This document shows, one piece after another, positions 5,422 through 11,535 of a stretch of 38,800 bases of DNA. A program made the position numbers and the translations under genes. The DNA lies in NCBI GenBank assembly GCA_046760505.1, contig JBHIEG010000018.1:1-38800 (forward strand), written 5' to 3'. Numbering within the stretch: the first letter of the stretch is position 1; every line of letters begins with the position of its first letter. The notes under the pieces were generated by a model, which saw nothing but the letters and a program-made list of their open reading frames with translations, had not been told where the DNA came from and searched no databases. This DNA comes from CAYFZR01 sp046760505 [NCBI: Candidatus Hydrothermarchaeota archaeon] (GTDB lineage: Archaea; CAYFZR01).

Positions 5422-5485
5422 GTTACCACGATCTTAGGCGGTAATAATTATTTTGCCTTTTTTTAGTAAATTTAGTTTTCGTAAA

Positions 5486-5504
5486 TGAAATAAACTTATA
5501 AAAG
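5486..5504 (+). promoter_or_regulatory. Promoter region of the winged-helix operon with TGAAATA half-site
   Basis: TGAAATAA (5486-5493) is followed directly by CTTATAAAAGG, a strong archaeal TATA-like element that would start transcription near 5525. A second TATA candidate, TATATATA (5553-5560), is 27 bp upstream of the ATG at 5584 and would give a leaderless message. The TGAAATA sequence recurs in the palindrome at 6795-6814. Confidence 0.45.
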
Positions 5505-5583
5505 GGAGATATGAAAAAATAACAGTTTCTCAACAGATTTGCTTACACAAACTATATATAATCCACGGTATAAAATAAAAAAC

Positions 5584-5943
5584 ATGTCAGTGGAAAAATT
5601 AGCAGCCTCCATGAAGGGTTATCTATCCGAGGAAACTGCTACCGACTTCTTATTACTCAACAAAATCTTCAATGAACCTAGATTCAGGGCACTGAAGAAC
5701 AAGGCTATTGACAGGGTTTCCACCGTCTTGCTATCCGGAGCGAAGAATCACGAGTTGTTCTTCGACATAGTCGAGTGGGGCGTCCAAAATGGAGTTGCCT
5801 CAAAGCCAACATTTTCTAGGAGAAAAAACTTTTTGAAGGACCTTGGAATCATTGAAGAAGAGAAGGTAAAGACAGACTTCGGAAGACCGAGGATCAGACT
5901 CATCTTAAATGAAGACAAGTTTAGAGAGCATTTCAATCCTTAA
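5584..5943 (+). CDS. Winged-helix DNA-binding regulator
   Basis: This 119-aa protein is a probable transcription regulator. The helical N-terminus (residues 1-50) would serve for dimerisation. A winged-helix domain covers about 55-110: LFFDIVEWGVQNG, then the recognition-helix region ASKPTFSRRKNFLKDLG, then a wing containing KTDFGRPRIRLIL. The ASKPTFSRR...GRPR pattern resembles, from memory, the C-terminal domain of haloarchaeal TbsP/DUF5821 regulators. ATG 5584 is preferred to an in-frame TTG at 5539 because a TATA box sits 27 bp upstream of the ATG. It lies 50 bp before the helical protein gene and probably shares its transcript. It is the likely local regulator of the CHAT locus. Confidence 0.75.
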   Translation: MSVEKLAASMKGYLSEETATDFLLLNKIFNEPRFRALKNKAIDRVSTVLLSGAKNHELFFDIVEWGVQNGVASKPTFSRRKNFLKDLGIIEEEKVKTDFGRPRIRLILNEDKFREHFNP

Positions 5944-5993
5944 TCTTTCTTTTTCATTCCCACTTTATGAAAGTCAAAGACTAGGGACAACGT

Positions 5994-6737
5994 ATGATAA
6001 AACTTACTGAGGAAGAATCAAAATTAGTTGAAGAATTCGCCAACTGTTATGATGTAGTTAAGAACATGCCTAACTTTCTCTATGCCAAATATCAGCTTGG
6101 AAATCTCAAGGAAGAAACTGAAAAACTCGGAAAGGATATTGAATATCATCTTTCCAAGGGAAAAGATCCTAGAGAGATAGAAAAACTAATTTCAGGTACT
6201 ATAGAAGAGGTCGAAACGAGGAGGAAGGTTTTCGGCTTATATGAAGTCCTTCCTTACTTCAGAAGGAAGGAGATTGATTTTCTAACCAGACTTCACAAAA
6301 AAGCCTTGGATGTATCGATCTTAGTTGTATTGAATAGAGAGGGACTGCTAAAATTAAACAAGGAAAAAGAAGAATCAATTAAAAACAGAATATGGCTAGG
6401 CTTGGAGTTAAAGATGTTTGCCATGCTTGGAGGCGTCCAAATACCCGAGGAATCCTCATTACCCAATGAAATCATCGGAAAAATATCAGAAGAATGCGTA
6501 AAAACCCTATATTCGAAAATCAAGGAGGAAAGAGAAAAATATCTGAAGTACATTCTGAATGTACTAGATTTCAGGCATAAAGTAGCGTTATACGATTTGG
6601 ACCCAGATCTCTGGCGTTTTTTTGTTGTAATAGAGGCGGTTAGATTACTTGATGTTTCTGGAGAGTTCGTACACGACTTGATAGAATTATCGATATTACT
6701 CCAAAAACTGGAAAAAATCGAAGAAGAAATTAAATAA
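5994..6737 (+). CDS. All-helical protein of unknown family (copy A)
   Basis: I do not recognise this 247-aa family. It is predicted to be almost entirely alpha-helical and soluble, with charged coiled-coil-like segments at about 35-75 and 235-247. The stretches shared with its paralog at 10762 are FANCYDVV (16-22), YFRRKEIDFLTRLHKKALD (88-106), WLGLELKMFAMLGG (134-147), DLDPDLWRFF (201-210) and RLLDVSGEFVHDLIELSILL (217-236). The two align without gaps from residue 10 to the end and look about two-thirds identical by eye. This copy stops at EEEIK and lacks the Gly/Trp tail of copy B. It lies downstream of the winged-helix gene, with a T-rich terminator-like run following it. Confidence 0.8.
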   Translation: MIKLTEEESKLVEEFANCYDVVKNMPNFLYAKYQLGNLKEETEKLGKDIEYHLSKGKDPREIEKLISGTIEEVETRRKVFGLYEVLPYFRRKEIDFLTRLHKKALDVSILVVLNREGLLKLNKEKEESIKNRIWLGLELKMFAMLGGVQIPEESSLPNEIIGKISEECVKTLYSKIKEEREKYLKYILNVLDFRHKVALYDLDPDLWRFFVVIEAVRLLDVSGEFVHDLIELSILLQKLEKIEEEIK

Positions 6738-6772
6738 AATTTAGTTTTAGAGTTAAAAAAACATCTAATTCG

Positions 6773-6788
6773 TTTTTTATTTTTTTCT
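6773..6788 (+). terminator. T-rich terminator after helical protein A
   Basis: About 35 bp after the stop codon, the plus strand reads a run of six T, an A and then seven T, typical of intrinsic U-tract termination in archaea. It separates the winged-helix/helical-protein operon from the micropeptide gene. Confidence 0.5.
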
Positions 6789-6794
6789 ACACTT

Positions 6795-6814
6795 TATTTC
6801 ATTTTAGTGAAATA
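6795..6814. promoter_or_regulatory. Perfect inverted repeat TATTTCA-N6-TGAAATA at the micropeptide promoter
   Basis: The two 7-bp arms match perfectly (6795-6801 and 6808-6814) around a 6-bp spacer. The right arm runs into AAATATATC, the best TATA candidate for the micropeptide gene, so a bound protein would compete with transcription factors. The TGAAATA half also occurs beside the TATA box of the winged-helix operon. It is a plausible operator for the winged-helix protein. Confidence 0.45.
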
Positions 6815-6868
6815 TATCTCAGATAAGTTTCATCTTTTTGTAACAAAGTGAATGGAGGGGGTTGGGAA

Positions 6869-7000
6869 ATGAAAACTAGAGTATTGAGTTTCTTTGCGGA
6901 AAGGCCAAGACTTGTCACATTCTTGGTATCCACTGTCGTGCTATTAAGCCTAAGCACGGTAGGACTTGCTGATCCTGCTGGTGGCGGTTGGGGACCATAG
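6869..7000 (+). CDS. 43-aa micropeptide with signal/transmembrane segment and GGGWGP tail
   Basis: A short frame with a strong ribosome site (GGAGGGGG, 6854-6861) encodes 43 residues. The N-terminus MKTRVLSFFAERPR is basic, residues 15-33 form one hydrophobic helix, and GLA-D at 32-35 would fit signal peptidase cleavage. Cleavage there would leave the nine-residue DPAGGGWGP. The [FY]xAExPR start, leucine-rich helix and terminal Gly-Pro recall tiny peptides I remember next to CHAT genes in haloarchaea (DUF7503-type names); this is recollection, not a search. The tail resembles that of helical protein B. Possible roles are secreted signal, modified peptide precursor, or CHAT substrate. Confidence 0.72.
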   Translation: MKTRVLSFFAERPRLVTFLVSTVVLLSLSTVGLADPAGGGWGP

Positions 7001-7013
7001 ATCTATTGCCGCT

Positions 7014-7211
7014 CTACTCTATTTTTATTTTTGAAATTTCGCTCGCCCAGTAGAGTTTATTTCTGTATAAAACAGGCGCCGAATGCTTTACTTTATTCAT
7101 AATGTTTCTCAAGTCCTCTGGTGTTATTTCAAATTTCGCCTCGTTGAAGGCAAGGTAGGTGTTCTTGCTTTCTTCAAGATAGAGGTAGAAGCAGCCACCG
7201 ATACCTAACAT
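7014..7211 (-). CDS. Small hypothetical protein downstream of the CHAT gene, 65 aa
   Basis: This 65-residue protein follows the CHAT stop codon after nine bases and is probably translated from the same message. An AGGTGG sequence sits almost against the ATG, closer than usual, so initiation is likely coupled to the upstream gene. The predicted fold is a beta-hairpin (CFYLYLEES, TYLAFNEAKFEI), a helix (TPEDLRNIMNKVKH) and a final strand region. There is no signal peptide. I do not recognise the family. It converges on the micropeptide gene with only 13 bases between stop codons. Confidence 0.55.
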   Translation of the reverse strand: MLGIGGCFYLYLEESKNTYLAFNEAKFEITPEDLRNIMNKVKHSAPVLYRNKLYWASEISKIKIE

Positions 7212-7220
7212 GCCACCTAG

Positions 7221-9056
7221 TCACTTAATTTTAAGAATTAATTTATCTTGATCAATTTTCTCTATACTATATACAACCGGTATATTTGCTCTGACCTTCT
7301 GCGTCAAGTAATACTCAGGATTTCCAAGCACCAGATAGTCCCTTCCATAAATGGAGGTTAATCGTGCCAGTTCCATTGCTGTTCCTATGGGAAAACCATT
7401 GCTTAATAGCCTTGAGAAATTATAGCCTATTTTTAGAGCCTCTTCATTGCAAACTTTAAATAGCGTAACTATTCCTGCGACGGATCCCTTTTTGATTAAA
7501 TCTTCTCCCTCTTCATAGCTGTTGCAGGCATTTAGGAAGAAAGTTGGAGTGTTGTTTTCTTTAATTTCACTTGCCTTTAAGGATCCATCGCTACAGACGA
7601 AACCATCCTCGCAGTGACCTATGTAGTGCAATAGATCAAAACCTCTGGCAAATATATCTGATAACTCATCCCTGGATAAAAATTCATAGATCTTTGTTTT
7701 AAGGGGAATATCCCTTCTTTTCCTGTATATCTCTCTAACCATCTCTATCTCATCTATCATCTTCTCGTCGTTCAGTACTAAGGCGATATCGATGTGATCT
7801 TTATCTTTACCATAATATTTTAACTGATTGTAGAATGCTTTTTCAGTTGATTTTGCACAGTCTATGGATACTACATCAGAGATCCACATGTGATTGTGGG
7901 AGTCCTTTAAAAAAGGTCTTCCTACGGTTTTTTTCTCTGCCATGGCGAGTGCATCGCCTCTGAAGAAATCATTTAATGATAGTTTGATGACTTCTCTCTC
8001 TGATATTGGCTCGAATCTTGGCAGATATATCAATGAGAGATTGTTCAGCAAGAAAGGAATCGATTTCAAATTCTCCAAGTAAGGCTTTACATAGGAAGAG
8101 AGATGCCATTTCGGCATATACTTTTTAATTTTCTCGTCTGGAACATCTAAGTATATAGGAAGTTGCTCTCCAATGCTTTTATTATATATTTCATTTATAT
8201 CGAAATCTAAGCCCTCTAATGCCTCCAACTCTTTTAAATTAAATTTATATAATCCCGCGTTTCTCACCAGACAATCCAGGAAGAATATCTTTTGAAGTAT
8301 CCAGTTTACTTCGTTTTCGAATTCTGGGAATTTGGATAAATAATATTCAAAGCCATCTGAAACTATTTTTGGCTCTCCAAATCTTATATCTGCGAGGAGA
8401 TAATATGCCAGAGGCGCAACCGTATAAAGATATTCTAATTTCTCGGGAACAAAGATCTCAATGCCCGAGGAAAGTTTTTTTAAATTTTCTGGAACTTCGA
8501 AATGATCGGAGAACTCTATCAAGGGAGGATGTCCTCTTAGAGTTGGATAGCTTCTTTCGCAAGTGCTTGTTTTTATAGAAGATGAAAGAAGGGATATTCC
8601 ACTGGCAATGTCCTCAAGATCCTTTGTAACCTTTATGGTGAATTCAGGTCTCTTATGATAGGATCTCACTCCAAATATTATTTCCCTTTCTTCATCGAAC
8701 TCTAAGGAAATATTTGCATCCTTATCACATGTTATTCTTATCTCCGAATTTACAAATGCATATATCTTTACATGTGAATCGATTTCGATTATGTATCTGT
8801 TTCTTGGAATGATGAAAGAAGAGTTAGTTTCTATTTGTGTTACAACCTCGTAGGTATCATAACTTCTTATATGCGTCAGGAAAGTATCATACCTTATCTC
8901 CTTGCATATTCCGGAAAATGTAACGTCTACAGGATATCTGAATTTAAAATCTTTTCCGGTAAATTTCCAATCTTTGCAATAAAGTCTAACAAGTTTCCTT
9001 TCTGTTTTGTCATGGATCATCAATTCTCCATTTCGGTAATTTATGGAAAATCCCAT
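7221..9056 (-). CDS. CHAT-domain (caspase-like) putative cysteine protease
   Basis: The C-terminal region of this 611-aa protein is a CHAT domain of the caspase clan. Residues 475-482 read DLLHYIGHC and 506-514 read FFLNACNSY, giving a candidate His481/Cys511 dyad in the usual contexts, followed by GSVAGIVTLFKV and a last block GRDYLVLGNPEYY. Upstream, the region from about 365 carries SLNDFFRGDALAMAEKKTVGRPF, the start of the peptidase fold. Residues 1-180 look beta-rich and 190-360 helical; neither matches the TPR arrays common in other CHAT proteins. There is no signal peptide or membrane segment. The dyad appears intact, so activity is expected, but the substrate is unknown. Neighbouring Gly-Pro-ending peptides are candidates. 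Confidence 0.85.
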   Translation of the reverse strand: MGFSINYRNGELMIHDKTERKLVRLYCKDWKFTGKDFKFRYPVDVTFSGICKEIRYDTFLTHIRSYDTYEVVTQIETNSSFIIPRNRYIIEIDSHVKIYAFVNSEIRITCDKDANISLEFDEEREIIFGVRSYHKRPEFTIKVTKDLEDIASGISLLSSSIKTSTCERSYPTLRGHPPLIEFSDHFEVPENLKKLSSGIEIFVPEKLEYLYTVAPLAYYLLADIRFGEPKIVSDGFEYYLSKFPEFENEVNWILQKIFFLDCLVRNAGLYKFNLKELEALEGLDFDINEIYNKSIGEQLPIYLDVPDEKIKKYMPKWHLSSYVKPYLENLKSIPFLLNNLSLIYLPRFEPISEREVIKLSLNDFFRGDALAMAEKKTVGRPFLKDSHNHMWISDVVSIDCAKSTEKAFYNQLKYYGKDKDHIDIALVLNDEKMIDEIEMVREIYRKRRDIPLKTKIYEFLSRDELSDIFARGFDLLHYIGHCEDGFVCSDGSLKASEIKENNTPTFFLNACNSYEEGEDLIKKGSVAGIVTLFKVCNEEALKIGYNFSRLLSNGFPIGTAMELARLTSIYGRDYLVLGNPEYYLTQKVRANIPVVYSIEKIDQDKLILKIK

Positions 9057-9159
9057 CTAAAACCACTATCGTCTTTTTTTGTTGAAGTTCTGACAGAATA
9101 GTATAAACCTCTAGATATTTATCTTTTATCATACTATTTTTCGAAGTATAACAAAAATT

Positions 9160-9168
9160 ATTTTATAG
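9160..9168 (+). promoter_or_regulatory. TATA box of the symporter gene
   Basis: ATTTTATAG is centred about 26 bp before the ATG at 9190, so the symporter message is probably leaderless. The 133-bp gap from 9057 to 9189 also holds the divergent CHAT promoter; on the minus strand TTTATACT near 9102-9109 is the best candidate. Confidence 0.45.
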
Positions 9169-9189
9169 ATGTTCATGACCTAAATACTC

Positions 9190-10647
9190 ATGAATTATAA
9201 TTTGCTTATCTTAATGACCTTTATTGCAATCACACTTTTCTTAGGTTTAAGAAGAAAGTCAATAGACATCCAGCAGATGCTTATTGCCGAAAAAAAGTTA
9301 GGTACCTTTGATACGGTAATAAATATATTTGCAACAAGTATAGGTCCCCATGCAATAGTAGGAACAATAGGTATGATATGGGTTATTGGGTTTGCAGAGG
9401 GAGCAGCTGAGTTAGCGGCTATAACAGGGCTTTTAATCTTCGCCTTTATTCTAATAAGACCCGTAAGAGAGAACTCTGAGTTTTCTCCTCCGGATATGTG
9501 GTACAACAGGTACGGCTTGGGAATAACCCTGTTCATTCATTTCATCTACTTTTTCGTGCTGTTAATCTCGTTTGCAGGGATCATTAAGGCAGGAGCATGG
9601 ACGGTAGGATCTCTGACAGGATTGGGTTTCCTCGAATCTTGCCTTCTGACCGTTTTACCCATCATGCTTTATGCTATATTTGGCGGCCTGAGATCCGTGG
9701 TTATAACAGATGTTTTTCAAGCCATATTTGTCTTCTTAGCCCTAGCTATTCCAGCATTCTTTGCACTAACAATGATAATAAAGGGAAAGATTATTGGCGT
9801 TCCTCATGAACTTTATAGCATGAAGTTTGAGGGAGACCCGAGCATAGCGGGGCTCGGGGTGTTTTCGAGACTTCTTCCTTGGTATCTCGTGATTTTATTG
9901 AATTACATCAAACCATCAAGCGTCTTGGGCTACAGGTCCATAAGCGCGGAAAGCGAGGAAGTGGCAAAAAAATCCATGTTTTACACCCTTCCTCTATGGA
10001 TATTTTATATGATCTGTGTTTTCTTGATAGGATACGCCTGTAAAGGATTGTTTCCAAACTGGCAGGATTTGGGCAACGATAGAGATAACGCATACATGTT
10101 TTTCGTTAGCGTACTTCCTTACAGTCAATTTTTAAAGCCTTTCTTGCTTCTCTGCCTTTTTGCTGCCATTGTCTCCACGATAGATACTCAAATAATCAAC
10201 TTAACAGCCGCCTATACAAGAAACGTCTACATAGTATTCTTTGAGAAAGTATTCAACTTGGAAGAGAGATTTAGGCTTAAGGCAAGCAGGATAATAGCAT
10301 TCATATTTGGTCTCACATTTTTGTTTGCGGTTCCGATAGTACCTAAGATAGAGAGTATCTGGCTTCTGGATATTTTCATCAGATCAGTAACCGCTGTCGT
10401 GATAGTTCCCCCTTATTTCTGCGCATATTTCCTGCCTAAAAAATTTGCAAACAAATATGGTTGTTGGATAGGGGTTATCTTGGGAATTCTCGGAGTATTT
10501 GCGGTCGAGTATTATAAATACAAAAATCACGTGAGGTTCATTCTGGGTTTGGTTGATACTTGGTGGTACGTGATCATATGCATATTGGTGACCATCCTGA
10601 TTATATCGTTCAGTCGAGTAGCCTCTTCTCTGAGAAAGATTGAATGA
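9190..10647 (+). CDS. Sodium:solute symporter (SSS/SLC5 family)
   Basis: This 485-aa integral membrane protein has about 13 hydrophobic segments, the usual size and topology for the SSS family. The N-terminal pattern of a first helix, then LGTFDTVINIFATSIGPHAIVGTIGMIWVIG, matches SSS helices 1 and 2, where substrate and sodium sites lie. FGGLRSVVITDVFQAIF is the characteristic helix 5-6 loop, and FAAIVSTIDTQIINLTA in helix 8 includes the S/T-rich sodium-site region. The substrate cannot be read from sequence; proline, pantothenate and carboxylates are all transported by relatives. It starts divergently from the CHAT gene and precedes helical protein B, so it lies physically inside the locus. 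Confidence 0.87.
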   Translation: MNYNLLILMTFIAITLFLGLRRKSIDIQQMLIAEKKLGTFDTVINIFATSIGPHAIVGTIGMIWVIGFAEGAAELAAITGLLIFAFILIRPVRENSEFSPPDMWYNRYGLGITLFIHFIYFFVLLISFAGIIKAGAWTVGSLTGLGFLESCLLTVLPIMLYAIFGGLRSVVITDVFQAIFVFLALAIPAFFALTMIIKGKIIGVPHELYSMKFEGDPSIAGLGVFSRLLPWYLVILLNYIKPSSVLGYRSISAESEEVAKKSMFYTLPLWIFYMICVFLIGYACKGLFPNWQDLGNDRDNAYMFFVSVLPYSQFLKPFLLLCLFAAIVSTIDTQIINLTAAYTRNVYIVFFEKVFNLEERFRLKASRIIAFIFGLTFLFAVPIVPKIESIWLLDIFIRSVTAVVIVPPYFCAYFLPKKFANKYGCWIGVILGILGVFAVEYYKYKNHVRFILGLVDTWWYVIICILVTILIISFSRVASSLRKIE

Positions 10648-10663
10648 TATCCCTTTATTTTAG

Positions 10664-10701
10664 TTGTCTGACAAATATGGGCCATTATTTCTTTGTCTGA
10701 C
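10664..10701. repeat. Direct repeat TTGTCTGAC, two copies 29 bp apart
   Basis: TTGTCTGAC occurs at 10664-10672 and 10693-10701, upstream of the TATA candidate for helical protein B. The first copy extends to TTGTCTGACAA, an 11-bp near-perfect palindrome, and the second to TTGTCTGACGAA. Paired sites spaced by about three helical turns suggest a binding site for a regulator or activator. Confidence 0.45.
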
Positions 10702-10722
10702 GAAAGATAGATGTACTTGAGG

Positions 10723-10731
10723 GCATAAAAT
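10723..10731 (+). promoter_or_regulatory. TATA box for helical protein B
   Basis: GCATAAAAT lies about 35 bp before the ATG at 10762, which predicts a transcription start near 10752 and a very short leader. It shows that helical protein B can be expressed independently of the symporter. Confidence 0.4.
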
Positions 10732-10761
10732 CTATTCTACAATAGTTTGATGTGAATTGTT

Positions 10762-11535
10762 ATGTATGCCTTGGGAGAGGTAGATTACAAACTGATAGAG
10801 GAGTTTGCAAATTGTTATGATGTAGTCAGGAATATGCCTCACTTTCTTTACTCGAAAAATCAGCTTAATGAACTTAAAGAAACCACTGAACAGATTGGTA
10901 GAGATCTCAGGCATCACCTCTCTAGAGTTAAAGATCCTTTGGAAGTTGAAGAGATGATCTCTACTGCGATAAATAATATCGAAAATCGGAGAAAATCTTT
11001 TGGATTAAATGAAGTTATCCCTTATTTTAGAAGAAAAGAAATAAGCTTCTTAACTCGCCTCCATAAAAAAGCCCTTGATGCATCAATCCTTTTAGTATTA
11101 AAAAATGAAGGAATGTTAAAAATGACAAGGGAAAAAGAAGAAAACATAAAAAGCAGGATATGGCTTGGGATAGAGTTGAAAATGTATGCAATGCTTGGTG
11201 GAATTGAAATACCAGATGAATCTACCTTTTCCTATGAGATTCTTGAAAAAATATCTAAGGAATGTGTGAATATTTTGTATTCAAGAATCAAAGATGAGAG
11301 AGAAAAGTATCTGAGACATATACTAAATATCTTAGATTTCAAGCATAAAGTAGCACTCTATAATTTAGACCCAGATCTATGGCGTTTCTTTACCATAATA
11401 GAGGCGGTTAGATTACTGGATGTTTCTGGAGAATTCGTTCATGACTTGATTGAACTGTCTATACTACTTGAGAAATTGGAAAAAATAGAAAAGGAGGTCA
11501 GTTATCCCGGATGGGGCGGATGCGGTGGACCTTAG
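10762..11535 (+). CDS. All-helical protein of unknown family (copy B) with GWGGCGGP tail
   Basis: This 257-aa paralog of the protein at 5994 aligns with it without gaps from residue 10 (KLIEEFANCYDVV) to residue 246. It keeps all the shared blocks, including YFRRKEISFLTRLHKKALD, DLDPDLWRFF and RLLDVSGEFVHDLIELSILL. The N-terminal ten residues differ. At the C-terminus it gains an extra YPGWGGCGGP tail that copy A lacks. That tail resembles the end of the 43-aa micropeptide (GGGWGP) in being Gly/Trp-rich and ending in Gly-Pro. There is no signal peptide, so the tail would be cytoplasmic. Its stop codon overlaps the convergent tgtA stop by three bases. Function is unknown. Confidence 0.8.
   Translation: MYALGEVDYKLIEEFANCYDVVRNMPHFLYSKNQLNELKETTEQIGRDLRHHLSRVKDPLEVEEMISTAINNIENRRKSFGLNEVIPYFRRKEISFLTRLHKKALDASILLVLKNEGMLKMTREKEENIKSRIWLGIELKMYAMLGGIEIPDESTFSYEILEKISKECVNILYSRIKDEREKYLRHILNILDFKHKVALYNLDPDLWRFFTIIEAVRLLDVSGEFVHDLIELSILLEKLEKIEKEVSYPGWGGCGGP

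What the first reader, a model, noticed from the sequence alone, without database searches (positions are those of the whole stretch)
5486..11535. CHAT-protease locus with micropeptide, winged-helix regulator and paired helical proteins
Within about 6 kb lie a CHAT-domain protein with an intact His481/Cys511 dyad, a winged-helix regulator, a secretion-type micropeptide, a 65-aa partner, a symporter, and two copies of an unrecognised helical protein. CHAT proteases in other systems act on dedicated neighbours (for example TPR-CHAT with Csx30 in type III-E CRISPR). Here the neighbours are different and the N-terminal part of the CHAT protein is not a TPR array. I infer a peptide-triggered or peptide-processing module, for signalling, stress or defence.
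Basis: partly seen in the sequence, partly recalled or inferred. Interest (0 to 1): 0.85.

Follow-up and report, generated by a model that had tools for sequence, protein, structure and literature searches.

The report
Archaeal CHAT protease with membrane micropeptide

Summary
The objects are real, but the grouping changes. The CHAT protein (7221-9056, -) is a CHAT-family protein; its His481/Cys511 dyad is kept in 23 of 24 aligned sequences. The "65-aa partner" (7014-7211) matches the conserved C-terminal segment of the CHAT family and lies in the same frame after one in-frame TGA. Twenty-five haloarchaeal plasmids carry 33 CHAT relatives (27.1-36.5% identity for the best place in each record). 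Just downstream and convergent lies a DUF7503 micropeptide: 29 of 29 DUF7503 hits in those records are downstream of a CHAT gene and point towards it, and 30 of 33 CHAT places have one. A separate search with one such peptide found 13 records, all among the 25. The window micropeptide has the same place and orientation. It is the best of 609 window frames against a profile of the haloarchaeal peptides, though below Pfam's DUF7503 cut-off. The helical pair (0 of 25 records) and the TbsP-like regulator (beside 1 of 33 CHAT genes) are not shown to belong. Best reading: a CHAT protease with a dedicated single-span membrane micropeptide as probable substrate or partner, probably for stress or defence. 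The biochemistry is inferred. No paper in the searched library mentions DUF7503 or DUF7504.

The parts
7221..9056 (-). CHAT-family protein, 611 aa up to an in-frame TGA: N-terminal ~400 aa of unknown fold with the invariant RGHPP stretch (R174-P178), then the CHAT domain with H477..G480-H481 and LNAC (C511)
   Evidence: tblastn to 25 haloarchaeal plasmids, E 1e-107 to 3e-44, 79-97% of the query covered; alignment A2, dyad kept in 23 of 24; hhalign to an annotated CHAT protein E 1.4e-7 with both dyad residues aligned; Pfam CHAT only E 0.23, below cut-off
7014..7211 (-). 65-aa ORF = C-terminal segment of the CHAT family, same frame, separated by TGA 7221-7223 and three codons
   Evidence: same frame, single stop; aligns with the C-terminus of haloarchaeal CHAT proteins
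6869..7000 (+). micropeptide, 43 aa, DUF7503-like: short basic N-terminus with Pro-Arg, hydrophobic span, Gly-rich tail ending Gly-Pro; convergent with CHAT, 13 nt between it and the end of the CHAT frame
   Evidence: best of 609 window frames with a profile of 30 haloarchaeal peptides, 13.9 bits; 0 of 20000 full and 7 of 20000 segment shuffles rank above it; Pfam DUF7503 E 0.14, 12.2 bits against cut-off 27
5539..5943 (+). winged-helix protein with TbsP C-terminal HTH only (an ATG start at 5584 is likely); membership in the module not shown
   Evidence: PF23336 E 1.4e-25; TbsP family beside 1 of 33 haloarchaeal CHAT genes
5994..6737 (+). helical protein copy 1, 247 aa, no known family; membership not shown
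   Evidence: no Pfam or NCBIfam match at E<=10; 0 of 25 records
10762..11535 (+). helical protein copy 2, 257 aa, with an extra C-terminal tail YPGWGGCGGP
   Evidence: 70% identical to copy 1; only weak sub-threshold family matches, E 0.047 or worse in Pfam and NCBIfam; one of only two of 42 window genes ending Gly-Pro, the other being the micropeptide
9190..10647 (+). sodium:solute symporter, divergent from CHAT; probably unrelated
   Evidence: PF00474 E 4.7e-25; not listed in the 24 annotation tables of haloarchaeal CHAT loci

Best explanation
This is a two-gene module: a cytoplasmic CHAT (clan CD-type, caspase-like) cysteine protease and its dedicated single-span membrane micropeptide, encoded tail-to-tail. 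Shown: the genetic linkage, the orientation, the dyad and the peptide's conserved features. Inferred: the roughly 400-aa N-terminal region with the RGHPP stretch senses a signal (in haloarchaea perhaps through the neighbouring DUF7504/HalOD1 proteins) and activates the CHAT domain. The CHAT domain then cuts or holds the micropeptide on its cytoplasmic side; the always-basic residue after the conserved Pro, just before the membrane span, is the best candidate cleavage point. The freed or unrestrained peptide changes the membrane or passes on a signal, giving a stress, dormancy or death response. In the window the CHAT reading frame is interrupted by one TGA before its last 65-68 residues, so this copy is split, read through, recently broken, or carries a sequence error.
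For: Linkage: 29 of 29 DUF7503 hits in 25 records are downstream of and convergent with a CHAT gene, 28 of them within 275 nt (24 over Pfam's cut-off, 5 below it with E<=0.001). One more was found by ORF inspection, giving 30 of 33 CHAT places. In 11 of 30 the two frames overlap at their stops, nine of them by 4 nt. Independent check: tblastn of one peptide in 72,556 plasmids gave 13 records, all CHAT records. All 30 CHAT places with a peptide carry the dyad; of the three without a peptide one has lost the dyad (L023), one is a fragment with no CHAT domain, one is intact. Peptide: a basic residue follows the conserved Pro position in 30 of 30 (15 K, 15 R), Pro 29 of 30, Gly-Pro end 19 of 30. 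It evolves as a protein: differences by codon position 131/81/283 over 14 overlapping pairs. CHAT and peptide distances correlate, r 0.58, 0 of 10000 permutations (21 pairs). Window: same position and orientation, best frame of 609. CHAT identity: hhalign E 1.4e-7.
Against: No biochemical or structural evidence: both predictions were poor (pLDDT 47.7 and 39.3) and the PDB gave no significant match by sequence. The window peptide is below Pfam's DUF7503 cut-off and lacks the polar residue (Gln in 24, Glu or Arg in 6 of 30) found in the span of the haloarchaeal peptides. A conserved Lys/Arg before a membrane span could merely fix topology. L022 is a full-length CHAT with an intact dyad and no detectable micropeptide; in L008 the peptide is 2.7 kb away. 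Linkage could reflect regulation rather than cleavage. The records are related, so counts are not independent events, and only plasmids were searched. The bacterial CHAT used was picked because it was the one non-haloarchaeal hit of a similarity search (E 7), which flatters its E-value; the Nostoc CHAT matched only weakly. The in-frame TGA may mean that this copy is not functional. In the window one other ORF (2500-2628) also follows its neighbour in frame after a TGA, so a real gene split is possible.
Confidence: 0.5

Rival explanations
1. The micropeptide is a tether or inhibitor, not a substrate: the membrane peptide binds the CHAT protein (perhaps through its C-terminal segment) and keeps it off or at the membrane, as an antitoxin-like partner.
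For: One-to-one convergent pairing with CHAT; the most conserved peptide positions are in the juxtamembrane part and the span.
Against: The conserved Pro-Lys/Arg fits a protease site at least as well; convergent orientation gives no co-expression, which toxin-antitoxin pairs usually have (established knowledge).
Confidence: 0.2
2. The peptide is a secreted signal: the hydrophobic part is a signal peptide and the short Gly-rich tail is released outside, with CHAT processing or sensing it.
For: Many peptides have small residues (Ala) just after the span followed by a short variable tail, often ending Gly-Pro (19 of 30).
Against: One clade (L009, L021, L024, L030, L031, L032) has no such Ala-rich site after the span; the CHAT protein has no evident export signal by inspection.
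Confidence: 0.15
3. All five kinds of gene (HTH, helical pair, micropeptide, CHAT, symporter) form one regulated locus in the window's lineage, different from the haloarchaeal version.
For: Copy 2 of the helical protein ends YPGWGGCGGP, recalling the micropeptide's AGGGWGP end; these are the only 2 of 42 window genes ending Gly-Pro. The two helical copies flank the CHAT locus.
Against: 0 of 25 records for the helical profile (no positive control), TbsP beside 1 of 33 CHAT genes; a symporter lies between CHAT and copy 2.
Confidence: 0.12
4. The window locus is a decaying remnant: the TGA truncates the CHAT protein and the module is dead in this organism.
For: Single in-frame TGA before a conserved segment; five haloarchaeal places are also split or truncated (one each on W06, W14, W18, W22, W24).
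Against: The segment after the TGA keeps its frame to the normal end and conserved residues; the dyad and the peptide are intact. A sequencing or assembly error is possible.
Confidence: 0.25

Closest known systems
Haloarchaeal CHAT / DUF7503 (PF24335) / DUF7504 (PF24336) gene neighbourhood
   Same: homologous CHAT protein along its length, convergent micropeptide just downstream, peptide often ending Gly-Pro
   Different: the window has no DUF7504 among the nine proteins scanned, its CHAT frame is cut by TGA, and it lies in a lower-GC archaeon on a stretch with ribosomal and RNA polymerase genes
Type III-E CRISPR Csx29 (TPR-CHAT) with Csx30
   Same: CHAT protease genetically tied to a dedicated partner, with a His/Cys dyad (passages of PMC10028731)
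   Different: no TPR found, no defence-family match for the seven locus proteins; the partner is a 43-aa membrane peptide, not a two-domain protein
Gasdermins cut by linked caspase-like proteases (recalled)
   Same: would work alike if the protease frees a membrane-active partner
   Different: a peptide of about 42-53 aa, no gasdermin-type protein recognised; cleavage not shown
HetF, cyanobacterial CHAT protein (passages of PMC8406250)
   Same: CHAT domain
   Different: HetF has TM and TPR regions and acts in cell division and heterocyst formation
TbsP, haloarchaeal regulator
   Same: C-terminal HTH domain
   Different: no match to the N-terminal TbsP domain in the 134-aa window protein; 96.4 bits against the NCBIfam cut-off of 300

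Membership tests
CHAT-domain (clan CD-type) proteins | His and Cys dyad in H..GH and LNxC-type motifs | tested here: met
   H477, G480 invariant, H481 and C511 in 23 of 24 aligned; also seen in 9 of the 10 places left out of the alignment, the tenth being a fragment
CHAT-domain (clan CD-type) proteins | profile match over Pfam's cut-off | tested here: not met
   11.3 bits against 24; 12 of 24 members reach E<=1, best 0.0011
CHAT-domain (clan CD-type) proteins | profile-profile match to annotated or Pfam-scored CHAT proteins with dyads aligned | tested here: met
   Haliscomenobacter CHAT E 1.4e-7, probability 94% (chosen from a similarity search); Nostoc CHAT weak, E 0.016, probability 2.8%, motifs still aligned
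CHAT-domain (clan CD-type) proteins | caspase-like fold | tested here: inconclusive
   single-sequence model pLDDT 39.3
CHAT-domain (clan CD-type) proteins | peptidase activity | not testable with these tools
   needs assay
DUF7503 micropeptides (PF24335) | Pfam gathering score | tested here: not met
   12.2 bits against 27, E 0.14
DUF7503 micropeptides (PF24335) | position downstream of and convergent with a CHAT gene (feature established here) | tested here: met
   29 of 29 haloarchaeal hits; window 13 nt from the end of the CHAT frame
DUF7503 micropeptides (PF24335) | Pro-Lys/Arg before a hydrophobic span, short tail often ending Gly-Pro | tested here: met
Type III-E Csx29/Csx30 system | TPR array in the CHAT protein | tested here: not met
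   no TPR family among the matches of 24 members
Type III-E Csx29/Csx30 system | Csx30 or Cas7-11 beside it | tested here: not met
   no PADLOC match for the seven locus proteins; the longest ORF listed in the window is 879 aa and is an RNA polymerase gene by inspection
TbsP regulator | TbsP_N plus HTH_TbsP_C domains and equivalog score | tested here: not met
   only PF23336 matched significantly; 96.4 bits against 300
Anti-phage defence system | protection against a virus | not testable with these tools
   needs plaque or infection assay

The most novel reading that the evidence does not exclude
An archaeal caspase-gasdermin analogue reduced to its minimum: a CHAT protease cuts a roughly 45-residue membrane peptide at its invariant basic residue after Pro, and the freed peptide permeabilises or depolarises the membrane as a suicide or dormancy response. 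It is present in haloarchaea and in a Mer-encoding archaeon. Haloferax volcanii scores for both DUF7503 and DUF7504, so the model organism may hold it, and it could bear on the still unassigned caspase-like activity reported there.
Probability: 0.2. Interest if true: 0.85.

Novelty: new variant of a known kind. Interest (0 to 1): 0.62.

Why it matters
CHAT proteases are known for acting on dedicated neighbours (Csx29 on Csx30). My paper searches turned up none paired with a membrane micropeptide, though no search was aimed at that phrase. The pairing found here names a concrete substrate candidate and a concrete site. It may exist in a genetically tractable archaeon, since Haloferax volcanii rings for DUF7503 and DUF7504. 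That would make the old question of which protein gives H. volcanii its caspase-like activity testable (PMC3615174, passages, calls for its identification). A caution: that activity is Asp-specific and the extracts showed no activity on trypsin substrates, while the conserved peptide site is basic, so the link is only a lead.

Tried and rejected
Genome scans for CHAT and for the helical pair and viral scans found no relatives; they use exact short peptides, so this is weak negative evidence. Phage records: no CHAT relative (best E 0.3). Helical pair: copy 2 has no significant match in plasmids (best E 2), the pair none in the 25 records, and only weak matches in Pfam, NCBIfam, PHROGs or PDB (best E 0.028) and none in PADLOC; its model is too poor to search with, so no fold search was run. 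The CHAT-domain model was also too poor.

Operators: the palindrome TTGTCTGACAA at 10664 with a near copy at 10693 is at chance level in number (37 of 100 shuffles have as many); TCTGACA likewise. An inverted match between 5470-5494 and 6793-6817 has unequal spacing by eye and was not pursued. Selenocysteine or programmed read-through of the TGA was considered but not tested.

Literature: nothing found for DUF7503, DUF7504, CHAT domain with haloarchaea, haloarchaeal or Haloferax volcanii. The other searches gave listings; five papers from these were looked into by term search, four of them giving passages. Only an open-licence library was searched, and the Pfam entry text could not be read. 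PMC4158269 holds no CHAT or caspase by term search.

Rows dropped: the CHAT alignment A2 holds 23 of 33 haloarchaeal CHAT places plus the window; L014, L016 (split) and eight second places were left out; their dyads were checked by motif. The distance correlation used 21 of 30 peptide pairs. In one search the pieces of three split genes (W06, W14, W18) were counted as one place each.
Full report
What is in the window. Between 5539 and 11535 lie a TbsP-type winged-helix gene, two helical-protein genes whose products are 70% identical, a micropeptide gene, a CHAT gene on the minus strand and a sodium:solute symporter. Coordinates in the finding are right. The surroundings look chromosomal: elongation factors, ribosomal proteins, split RNA polymerase genes, Mer, CofG, CofH and a CcmC-like protein (ribosomal and elongation-factor names are by inspection; CcmC is below its cut-off). 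GC is 34-45% and the CHAT protein is not acidic (Asp+Glu to Lys+Arg 1.12, against 1.43-2.72 in 23 haloarchaeal relatives), so the organism is very probably not a haloarchaeon. It encodes C1-pathway enzymes of the methanogen/methanotroph type (inference from Mer, CofG, CofH). No genome is held for it and it was not placed further.

The 65-aa gene is part of the CHAT family. The ORF 7014-7211 is in the same frame as the 611-aa CHAT ORF, after one TGA and three codons. In an alignment of the window with 23 haloarchaeal CHAT proteins the reading frame of the relatives runs on into the matching segment; L024 alone is cut short there. A weak tblastn of the 65 residues pointed to the ends of CHAT genes in two haloarchaeal records (E 2). 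With that segment counted as CHAT, 13 nt separate the end of CHAT from the end of the micropeptide. TGA ends 12 of 43 listed window ORFs, this one included, and one other ORF (2500-2628) also follows its neighbour in frame after a TGA. Whether this is a real split, a read-through, a fresh mutation or an error cannot be told.

CHAT identity. Pfam's CHAT model gives only E 0.23 for the window protein and reaches E<=1 in 12 of 24 family members. Profile-profile comparison with an annotated CHAT protein of Haliscomenobacter gives E 1.4e-7 and aligns HYIGH with HFGGH and LNAC with LNGC. That protein was chosen because it was the one non-haloarchaeal hit (E 7) of a similarity search, so the figure is somewhat flattering; a Nostoc CHAT protein aligns at the same motifs but weakly, E 0.016 and probability 2.8%. 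H481 and C511 are kept in 23 of 24; the exception L023 has lost both. Of the ten haloarchaeal places left out of the alignment nine show both motifs and one is a fragment. The N-terminal 400 residues match no family convincingly; RGHPP is invariant there.

Co-occurrence. tblastn finds relatives on 25 of 72,556 plasmid records, all haloarchaeal (nine genera), at 27.1-36.5% identity for the best place of each record; in 24 of the 25 one place covers at least 80% of the query. A profile search gives 33 CHAT places in these records after joining the coordinates of three split genes. DUF7503 gives 29 hits: 24 above Pfam's cut-off and 5 below it with E<=0.001. All 29 lie downstream of a CHAT gene and point towards it; 28 are within 275 nt and one is 2.7 kb away. 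A further micropeptide at W11 (L032) was found by ORF inspection, so 30 of 33 CHAT places have one, and all 30 carry the dyad. The three without are L022 (dyad intact), L023 (dyad lost) and a CHAT fragment on W22. In 11 of the 30 the two frames overlap at their stops, nine by exactly 4 nt. To avoid choosing records by CHAT, one peptide was searched in all plasmids: 13 records, 13 of them CHAT records; a second peptide found only itself. DUF7504 lies within 1.4 kb on the same strand at 26 of 33 CHAT places (21 upstream, 5 downstream), and also elsewhere (42 hits in all). TbsP-type HTH lies beside one (W09). The helical profile gives 0 of 25, though with no positive control.

The micropeptide. 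Thirty haloarchaeal peptides align with the window's. A basic residue follows the conserved Pro position in 30 of 30, the Pro is kept in 29 of 30, a hydrophobic span follows, and 19 of 30 end Gly-Pro. Differences fall by codon position 131/81/283 across 14 pairs, which overlap in members, so the ORFs look like genes under protein-level constraint. CHAT and peptide distances correlate (r 0.58, 0 of 10,000 permutations, 21 pairs), as expected of a unit inherited together. The window peptide is the best of 609 stop-to-stop window frames of 30 aa or more with this profile (13.9 bits, its own frame 12.9, next unrelated frame 2.8); none of 20,000 full shuffles and 7 of 20,000 segment-preserving shuffles rank above it. 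It fails Pfam's DUF7503 cut-off (12.2 of 27 bits) and lacks the polar residue in the span. I call it DUF7503-like, a probable homologue by sequence, place and orientation together.

How it most likely works. CHAT proteases can cut a dedicated partner on a signal; Csx29 cuts Csx30 once, when target RNA is bound (passages of PMC10028731). Here the only constant partner found is the micropeptide. With a basic N-terminus and a hydrophobic span it should sit in the membrane with the Pro-Lys/Arg on the inside, next to the cytoplasmic CHAT protein (inference). Clan CD enzymes often prefer basic residues (recalled), so a cut after Lys/Arg is the best guess; binding without cutting is the main rival. 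Presence on plasmids, more than one copy in several records, split or truncated copies (on W06, W14, W18, W22, W24) and restriction-modification genes close by at L017 and L024 fit an accessory stress or conflict role; this is inference and was not tested against a background.

Known or new. No paper in the searched library mentions DUF7503 or DUF7504, or CHAT domain together with haloarchaea, haloarchaeal or Haloferax volcanii. Pfam has both DUF families under consecutive numbers, so its curators may have noticed the neighbourhood; their text could not be read. H. volcanii rings for both families; whether it has the CHAT gene was not tested. Caspase-like activity without an assigned gene is reported in that species, Asp-specific and with no activity on trypsin substrates in extracts (abstract and passages of PMC3615174). 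I rate this a new variant of a known kind: a CHAT protease with a dedicated partner, where the partner is of a new sort.

Noticed in passing
11503-11535 and 6971-7000: Copy 2 of the helical protein ends YPGWGGCGGP and the micropeptide ends DPAGGGWGP; these are the only 2 of 42 window genes ending Gly-Pro, and copy 1 lacks the tail. A shared C-terminal recognition tag is possible.
   Followed up: partly
10664-10674 and 10693-10703: Perfect palindrome TTGTCTGACAA and a one-mismatch copy 29 nt on, upstream of helical copy 2; could be an operator, but numbers are at chance level.
   Followed up: partly
L030 (W14:20661-22705), L024 (W24:13252-15207): One of the two CHAT copies on each of two Halorussus caseinilyticus plasmids is shifted or truncated near the same C-terminal segment that the window's TGA cuts off.
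   Followed up: no
L023 (W23:32059-34035): A full-length CHAT relative that has lost both dyad residues and has no micropeptide; it sits next to an ATP-binding protein.
   Followed up: no
L022 3825-4667: A full-length TbsP gene lies divergently beside a CHAT gene with intact dyad but no detectable micropeptide.
   Followed up: no
L003, L010, L011, L019 upstream of CHAT: DUF7504 lies in proteins annotated as HalOD1 output-domain proteins (fusion confirmed by Pfam for L010), hinting at a signalling input to CHAT in haloarchaea.
   Followed up: no
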